Notes under the pieces: generated by a model
Told to the model about the DNA's origin: nothing
Databases searched by the model: none
What the model saw: the letters and a program-made list of their open reading frames with translations, nothing else
DNA from: Mycolicibacterium flavescens
GTDB lineage: Bacteria > Actinomycetota > Actinomycetes > Mycobacteriales > Mycobacteriaceae
Direction: 5' to 3'
Length of the DNA: 64,000 bases
NCBI RefSeq assembly: GCF_001722335.1
Contig: NZ_MIHA01000010.1
Span: 138,993 to 202,992 of the forward strand
Part shown: positions 63,763 to 64,000 of the stretch, piece after piece
Layout: the number at the start of each line of letters is the position of its first letter
Numbering within the stretch: position 1 is the first letter of the stretch
Made by a program: the position numbers and the translations under genes

Positions 63763-64000
63763 ATGGATGCCGTCACCGAGGTGCCGTTACCGGTCAACGA
63801 ACCCGTCCACGACTACGCGCCCGGATCCGGGGAGCGAGCCCGCCTCCTCGAAGCCCTGGCCGCCTTGGAACCCGGCGAAGAACCCGTCGCTAAGGGGCTG
63901 CTGCAGTCGCTGGTCGACGGTGTGAAGCTGGCGCTCAAAGAGGGCCTGGTGCCGACCGGTGTCGACAAGTTCGTCTACCTCGCCGCGCCGGTGATCGCCG
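63763..64000 (+). CDS. pruA: pruA 5' end joined in frame to NuoH-like sequence
   Basis: The frame starts at ATG 63763 and is open to the window end (79 codons). Residues 1-35 read MDAVTEVPLPVNEPVHDYAP then GSGERARLLEALAALE, a clear PruA (delta-1-pyrroline-5-carboxylate dehydrogenase) start in the expected place next to pucR. After about residue 40 the sequence changes to KGLLQSLVDGVKLALKEGLV and DKFVYLAAPVIA, typical of NuoH (NADH dehydrogenase subunit H) and not of PruA. The conserved PruA continuation (LPHVIGGR-like) is absent. The junction lies near 63870-63893. It may be an assembly error or a true rearrangement; a working PruA is not encoded as read. Confidence 0.75.
   Translation, partial: MDAVTEVPLPVNEPVHDYAPGSGERARLLEALAALEPGEEPVAKGLLQSLVDGVKLALKEGLVPTGVDKFVYLAAPVIA

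What the first reader, a model, noticed from the sequence alone, without database searches (positions are those of the whole stretch)
63763..64000. pruA start fused in frame to NuoH-like sequence at the window edge
The first 35 codons are a normal PruA N-terminus behind pucR, but from about 63893 the protein reads KGLLQSLVDGVKLALKE and DKFVYLAAPVIA, which is the NuoH core. PruA and NuoH genes are far apart in mycobacteria. Both parts are in the same frame, so the join would pass a simple ORF check. Either the assembly is chimeric here or a real recombination has broken pruA and moved part of nuo.
Basis: partly seen in the sequence, partly recalled or inferred. Interest (0 to 1): 0.7.

Follow-up and report, generated by a model that had tools for sequence, protein, structure and literature searches.

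The report
Chimeric contig end: pruA joined to nuoH
The last 111 bases of this mycobacterial contig belong to a different gene (nuoH) joined to the start of pruA right at the contig's end, most likely an ordinary assembly error rather than a new gene.

Summary
Window 63763-63889 is a normal PruA N-terminus and about 63890-64000 is NuoH, in one open frame. The closest genome found, G014 (proteins identical to Mycolicibacterium rutilum), matches the window collinearly up to 63861. Its own nuoH, 2.55 Mb away, matches the tail at 102 of 109 bases. So both pieces fit one lineage.

The deciding evidence is in the protein database. It holds exactly this 79-residue protein once, on one contig of 202,992 bases. 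Base 64000 is G, so no stop can follow; the protein is cut by the contig end. The join therefore lies only 109-111 bases from the end of a contig. Intact relatives exist. PruA P0138 (labelled M. flavescens) shares all 42 residues before the join and then reads ELPHVIGG. NuoH P0016 (name masked) shares all 36 after it. Both list a contig of 1,062,037 bases. Of 254 proteins fetched, only this one carries both parts.

Verdict: most likely a short-read assembly chimera at a contig end. A real rearrangement is not strictly excluded, because neither reads nor the rest of the assembly could be examined.

The parts
62085..63668 (-). pucR-like regulator, 527 aa, open and divergent from pruA
Evidence: Open frame. 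The stretch 62085-63861 matches G014 at 83%.
63763..63889 (+). Genuine start of pruA (1-pyrroline-5-carboxylate dehydrogenase): 42 codons plus one base
   Evidence: PDB 4idm match. Identical over 42 of 42 residues to full-length PruA P0138. Collinear with G014 up to 63861.
63889..63890 (+). The join (uncertain by about 2 bases)
   Evidence: Three-way comparison of the window, G014 pruA and G014 nuoH. In 22 pruA loci of 19 relatives the sequence continues as LPHVIGG, LPQVIGG or LPHIIGG here.
63890..64000 (+). Misplaced internal piece of nuoH (NuoH residues 58-93 by P0016), running to the contig end
   Evidence: PF00146; 102 of 109 bases identical to G014 nuoH; 36 of 36 residues identical to full-length NuoH P0016.

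Best explanation
The join is an assembly chimera at the end of a short-read contig. The contig, 202,992 bases long, is correct up to about 63889, inside the pruA gene. Its last 109-111 bases come from the nuoH gene of the same organism or a very close relative. The likely route, which is inferred, is a chimeric read or a false graph edge that led the assembler from pruA into nuoH, where the path met the real nuoG-nuoH path and stopped. The pruA gene would then continue on another contig. Shown: both identities, the nearness of the join to the contig end, the single occurrence of the fused protein, and intact genes with identical flanks elsewhere. Inferred: that the contig is a short-read one, and how the false join arose.
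For: 1) The exact 79-aa protein is in the protein database once, on 1 contig of 202,992 bases. Its last codon ends at 63999 and base 64000 is G, so the following codon is no stop. Hence the protein is cut by the contig end, and the foreign tail is 109-111 bases, shorter than a usual 150-base read. 2) PruA P0138 (543 aa, labelled M. flavescens) is identical over the 42 residues before the join and reads on normally. NuoH P0016 (413 aa, name masked) is identical over the 36 residues after it and is normal on both sides. Both list a contig of 1,062,037 bases, so probably one genome has both genes intact. 3) Of 254 fetched proteins only P0001 has both parts by motif. 4) Most of the window is collinear with G014 2,869,384-2,936,661, and the tail jumps to 5,484,338. 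5) In 19 relatives (22 loci) pruA continues normally at this point.
Against: No reads were available, and the window's own assembly is not held, so its own pruA and nuoH were not seen. The join is in frame (1 in 3 by chance). P0138 is a cluster of one sequence on one contig, so no full-length PruA of the window's own strain was seen; a remainder of about 500 aa would probably have fallen below the 120 rows listed. One of 13 genomes (G135) aligns across the join. One search shows this is its ordinary nuoH, where GAACC/CGTCG happens to occur just upstream, with gaps of 1 and 3 bases. This short likeness of the two genes at the join could favour a real microhomology event as well as a PCR template switch. 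The protein search for fusions was limited: one search considered proteins of roughly 43-138 aa, and searches listed 120 of 7998 and 120 of 8000.
Confidence: 0.92

Rival explanations
1. A real rearrangement in this strain broke pruA after codon 42 and placed an internal part of nuoH behind it, either by moving nuo or by duplicating part of it.
For: Both pieces fit the same lineage and keep frame. nuoH of a relative has GAACC/CGTCG just upstream of the point of entry, like pruA at the join, which could seed a microhomology event. A real duplication would also make a short-read contig stop one k-mer or read length past the join.
Against: A simple deletion would remove very large parts of the chromosome if gene order is as in G014, where the sites are 2.55 Mb apart on a 5,987,831-base chromosome; order in this species may differ. 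The fused protein was found on one contig only, and intact genes with identical flanks exist. A same-species full-length fusion of about 395 aa would probably have been listed, where a 347-aa NuoH piece of a relative was (P0080), but none was.
Confidence: 0.06
2. The tail is contamination: a nuoH read of another Mycolicibacterium in the same sample.
For: The DNA of this strain's own nuoH was not seen; identity to the nearest held nuoH is 94%.
Against: Both halves therefore fit one species.
Confidence: 0.02

Closest known systems
PruA (1-pyrroline-5-carboxylate dehydrogenase) of Mycolicibacterium, e.g. P0138, PDB 4idm
   Same: First 42 residues and the divergent pucR-like neighbour
   Different: Lacks everything after residue 42, including the aldehyde dehydrogenase domain
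NuoH (PF00146), e.g. P0016, PDB 8e9g_H
   Same: 36 residues, equivalent to NuoH 58-93
   Different: Lacks the first 57 residues and is cut after residue 93 by the contig end; lies outside the nuo operon
Chimeric ends of short-read contigs (assembly artefact)
   Same: Foreign tail of about one read or k-mer length at a contig end; single occurrence; intact parents elsewhere
   Different: Nothing observed sets it apart; the reads needed for proof were not available

Membership tests
Assembly chimera at a contig end | Two unlinked genomic regions joined | tested here: met
   In G014 the two sites are 2.55 Mb apart; distance in the window's own species not seen
Assembly chimera at a contig end | Join within about a read or k-mer length of the contig end | tested here: met
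   79-aa database protein on a 202,992-base contig with no possible stop after it; tail 109-111 bases
Assembly chimera at a contig end | Join not found in independent assemblies | tested here: met
   1 contig in the database; 1 of 254 fetched proteins has both parts, namely this one. Only the best 120 rows were seen.
Assembly chimera at a contig end | Reads of the same sample do not support the join | not testable with these tools
   No reads and no own genome held
PruA | Aldehyde dehydrogenase domain PF00171 | tested here: not met
   Pfam scan of the 79 aa finds only PF00146
NuoH | Full-length PF00146 membrane protein | tested here: not met
   Only profile positions 40-75 of 298 are present

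The most novel reading that the evidence does not exclude
A real in-frame PruA(1-42)-NuoH(58 onward) fusion arising from a recent rearrangement or partial nuo duplication in this strain, which would make a NuoH variant with a new N-terminus under pruA control and inactivate the PruA step of proline catabolism.
Probability: 0.04. Interest if true: 0.3.

Novelty: not a real feature. Interest (0 to 1): 0.05.

Why it matters
It matters mainly as data hygiene. The chimera entered a public protein set as a 79-residue protein carrying a NuoH domain label. It could mislead gene-fusion or gene-neighbour predictions that do not discount contig ends.

Tried and rejected
Own genome: none is held. The one genome-contig scan, with a 21-base pattern at the pruA start, found three more distant relatives, so the window's own species was not obtained as DNA. 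Two draws (396 genomes of the genus; 198 relatives; the sets overlap) also gave no same-species genome. The best was G014, at 83% over 62085-63861. Its name M. rutilum rests on its NuoH and PruA being 100% identical to database proteins of that name.

A source in another genus was considered for the DKFVYLAAPVIA stretch and rejected. DKFVYLAAPV occurs in 41 of the 120 NuoH proteins, and the full 12 residues in 10 of 120, G014's own among them.

Recombination clues at the join: 2-kb composition steps show nothing at the resolution used and ARAGORN found no tRNA in the window. nuoH of G135 shows a gapped likeness to the pruA end at the join, and in G014 nuoH the bases GTCG lie a few bases upstream. 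This is too little to tell a real event from an artefact. No repeat search was run.

A tail of 111 bases equals a k-mer size that I recall some SPAdes wrappers using for 150-base reads; this is recall only. Two paper searches (on chimeric contig ends, 2 papers; on M. flavescens genomes, 1 paper) were seen as listings with the starts of abstracts and were not followed further.

Masked source fields: P0016 shows '-' for sources, which the tool uses for proteins that the window itself encodes. This may hint that the window's own assembly holds an intact NuoH, but I do not rely on it.

Full report
What is there. The open frame 63763-64000 encodes 79 residues with no stop. Residues 1-36 match PruA (PDB 4idm, E=1e-8) and residues 44-78 match NuoH (PDB 8e9g_H, E=7e-11). 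Pfam finds PF00146 at residues 44-79, profile positions 40-75 of 298.

Where the join is. In 22 loci from 19 related genomes, the pruA start is followed at this point by normal PruA sequence: LPHVIGG, in one genome LPQVIGG and in one LPHIIGG (the other 3 of the 25 loci held then are nuoH loci). Against G014, the window reads GAACCCGTCG as pruA does, up to 63889. From 63892 it matches nuoH at 102 of 109 bases. The two bases between are uncertain.

Which organism. Most of the window is collinear with G014 from 2,869,384 to 2,936,661, with a few gaps and insertions. The tail maps to 5,484,338-5,484,446. On the pucR-pruA side G014 was the best of 391 matching genomes among 396 searched. On the tail side it was the best of 13 of 13 genomes searched. 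It was again the best on both sides in an overlapping set of 198 genomes, 149 of them with a match. Both pieces thus fit one clade. G014's NuoH and PruA are 100% identical to proteins named M. rutilum.

The contig ends here. The protein database holds exactly the 79-residue protein, on one contig of 202,992 bases. Its last codon ends at 63999 and base 64000 is G, so a stop cannot follow. The record must be a gene cut by the contig end, and the window's right edge is that end, within a base or two. The foreign piece is therefore a terminal tail of 109-111 bases.

The intact parents. PruA P0138 (543 aa, labelled M. flavescens, contig 1,062,037) has the same 42 residues up to the join and continues ELPHVIGG. 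It is the only one of 254 fetched proteins, besides the chimera, with 42 of 42. NuoH P0016 (413 aa, longest contig 1,062,037, name and sources masked) contains the 36-residue tail exactly, with normal NuoH on both sides. It is the only one of 134 examined, besides the chimera, with 36 of 36. The equal contig length suggests, but does not prove, that both lie on one contig of one genome.

Other fusions. By motif, 127 of 254 fetched proteins are PruA-like and 121 are NuoH-like; only P0001 is both. 7 of 254 match neither motif, and the starts printed for them read as plain PruA or NuoH. The limits are these: one search considered short proteins only, and searches listed the best 120 of 7998 and of 8000. 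A full-length fusion from the same species would probably have been listed, since a 347-residue NuoH piece (P0080) was; one from a distant species would not.

Results against this reading. In one search the match of G135 runs across the join. One search shows that this is its ordinary nuoH, whose upstream bases resemble the pruA end with gaps of 1 and 3 bases. This weak likeness could seed either a laboratory template switch or a real microhomology event. The join is in frame, a 1 in 3 chance. The window's own assembly was not available, so its own pruA and nuoH were not seen.

Interpretation. The join links two genes that lie far apart in the nearest relative. Its fused protein was found once, about one read length from the end of a contig, and intact versions of both genes with identical flanks exist. 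That is what a short-read assembly chimera looks like. I put this at 0.92. A real rearrangement or partial nuo duplication stays possible (about 0.06).

Value.

Noticed in passing
window 2434-3952 and 22663-23935: Two stretches of about 1.5 and 1.3 kb lack a listed match in the otherwise collinear G014 segment (matches of 150 bases or less were not printed). A simple gene picker puts open frames at 2475-3944 (-) and 22759-23931 (+) there.
   Followed up: no
window 10490-10513: G014 carries about 2.3 kb here that the window lacks (2881227 to 2883493).
   Followed up: no
L007 and L009 (genome G003): One relative, a metagenome-assembled Mycobacteriaceae genome, has two nuoG-nuoH-nuoI-like regions on different contigs: either two operons or mixed strains.
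   Followed up: no
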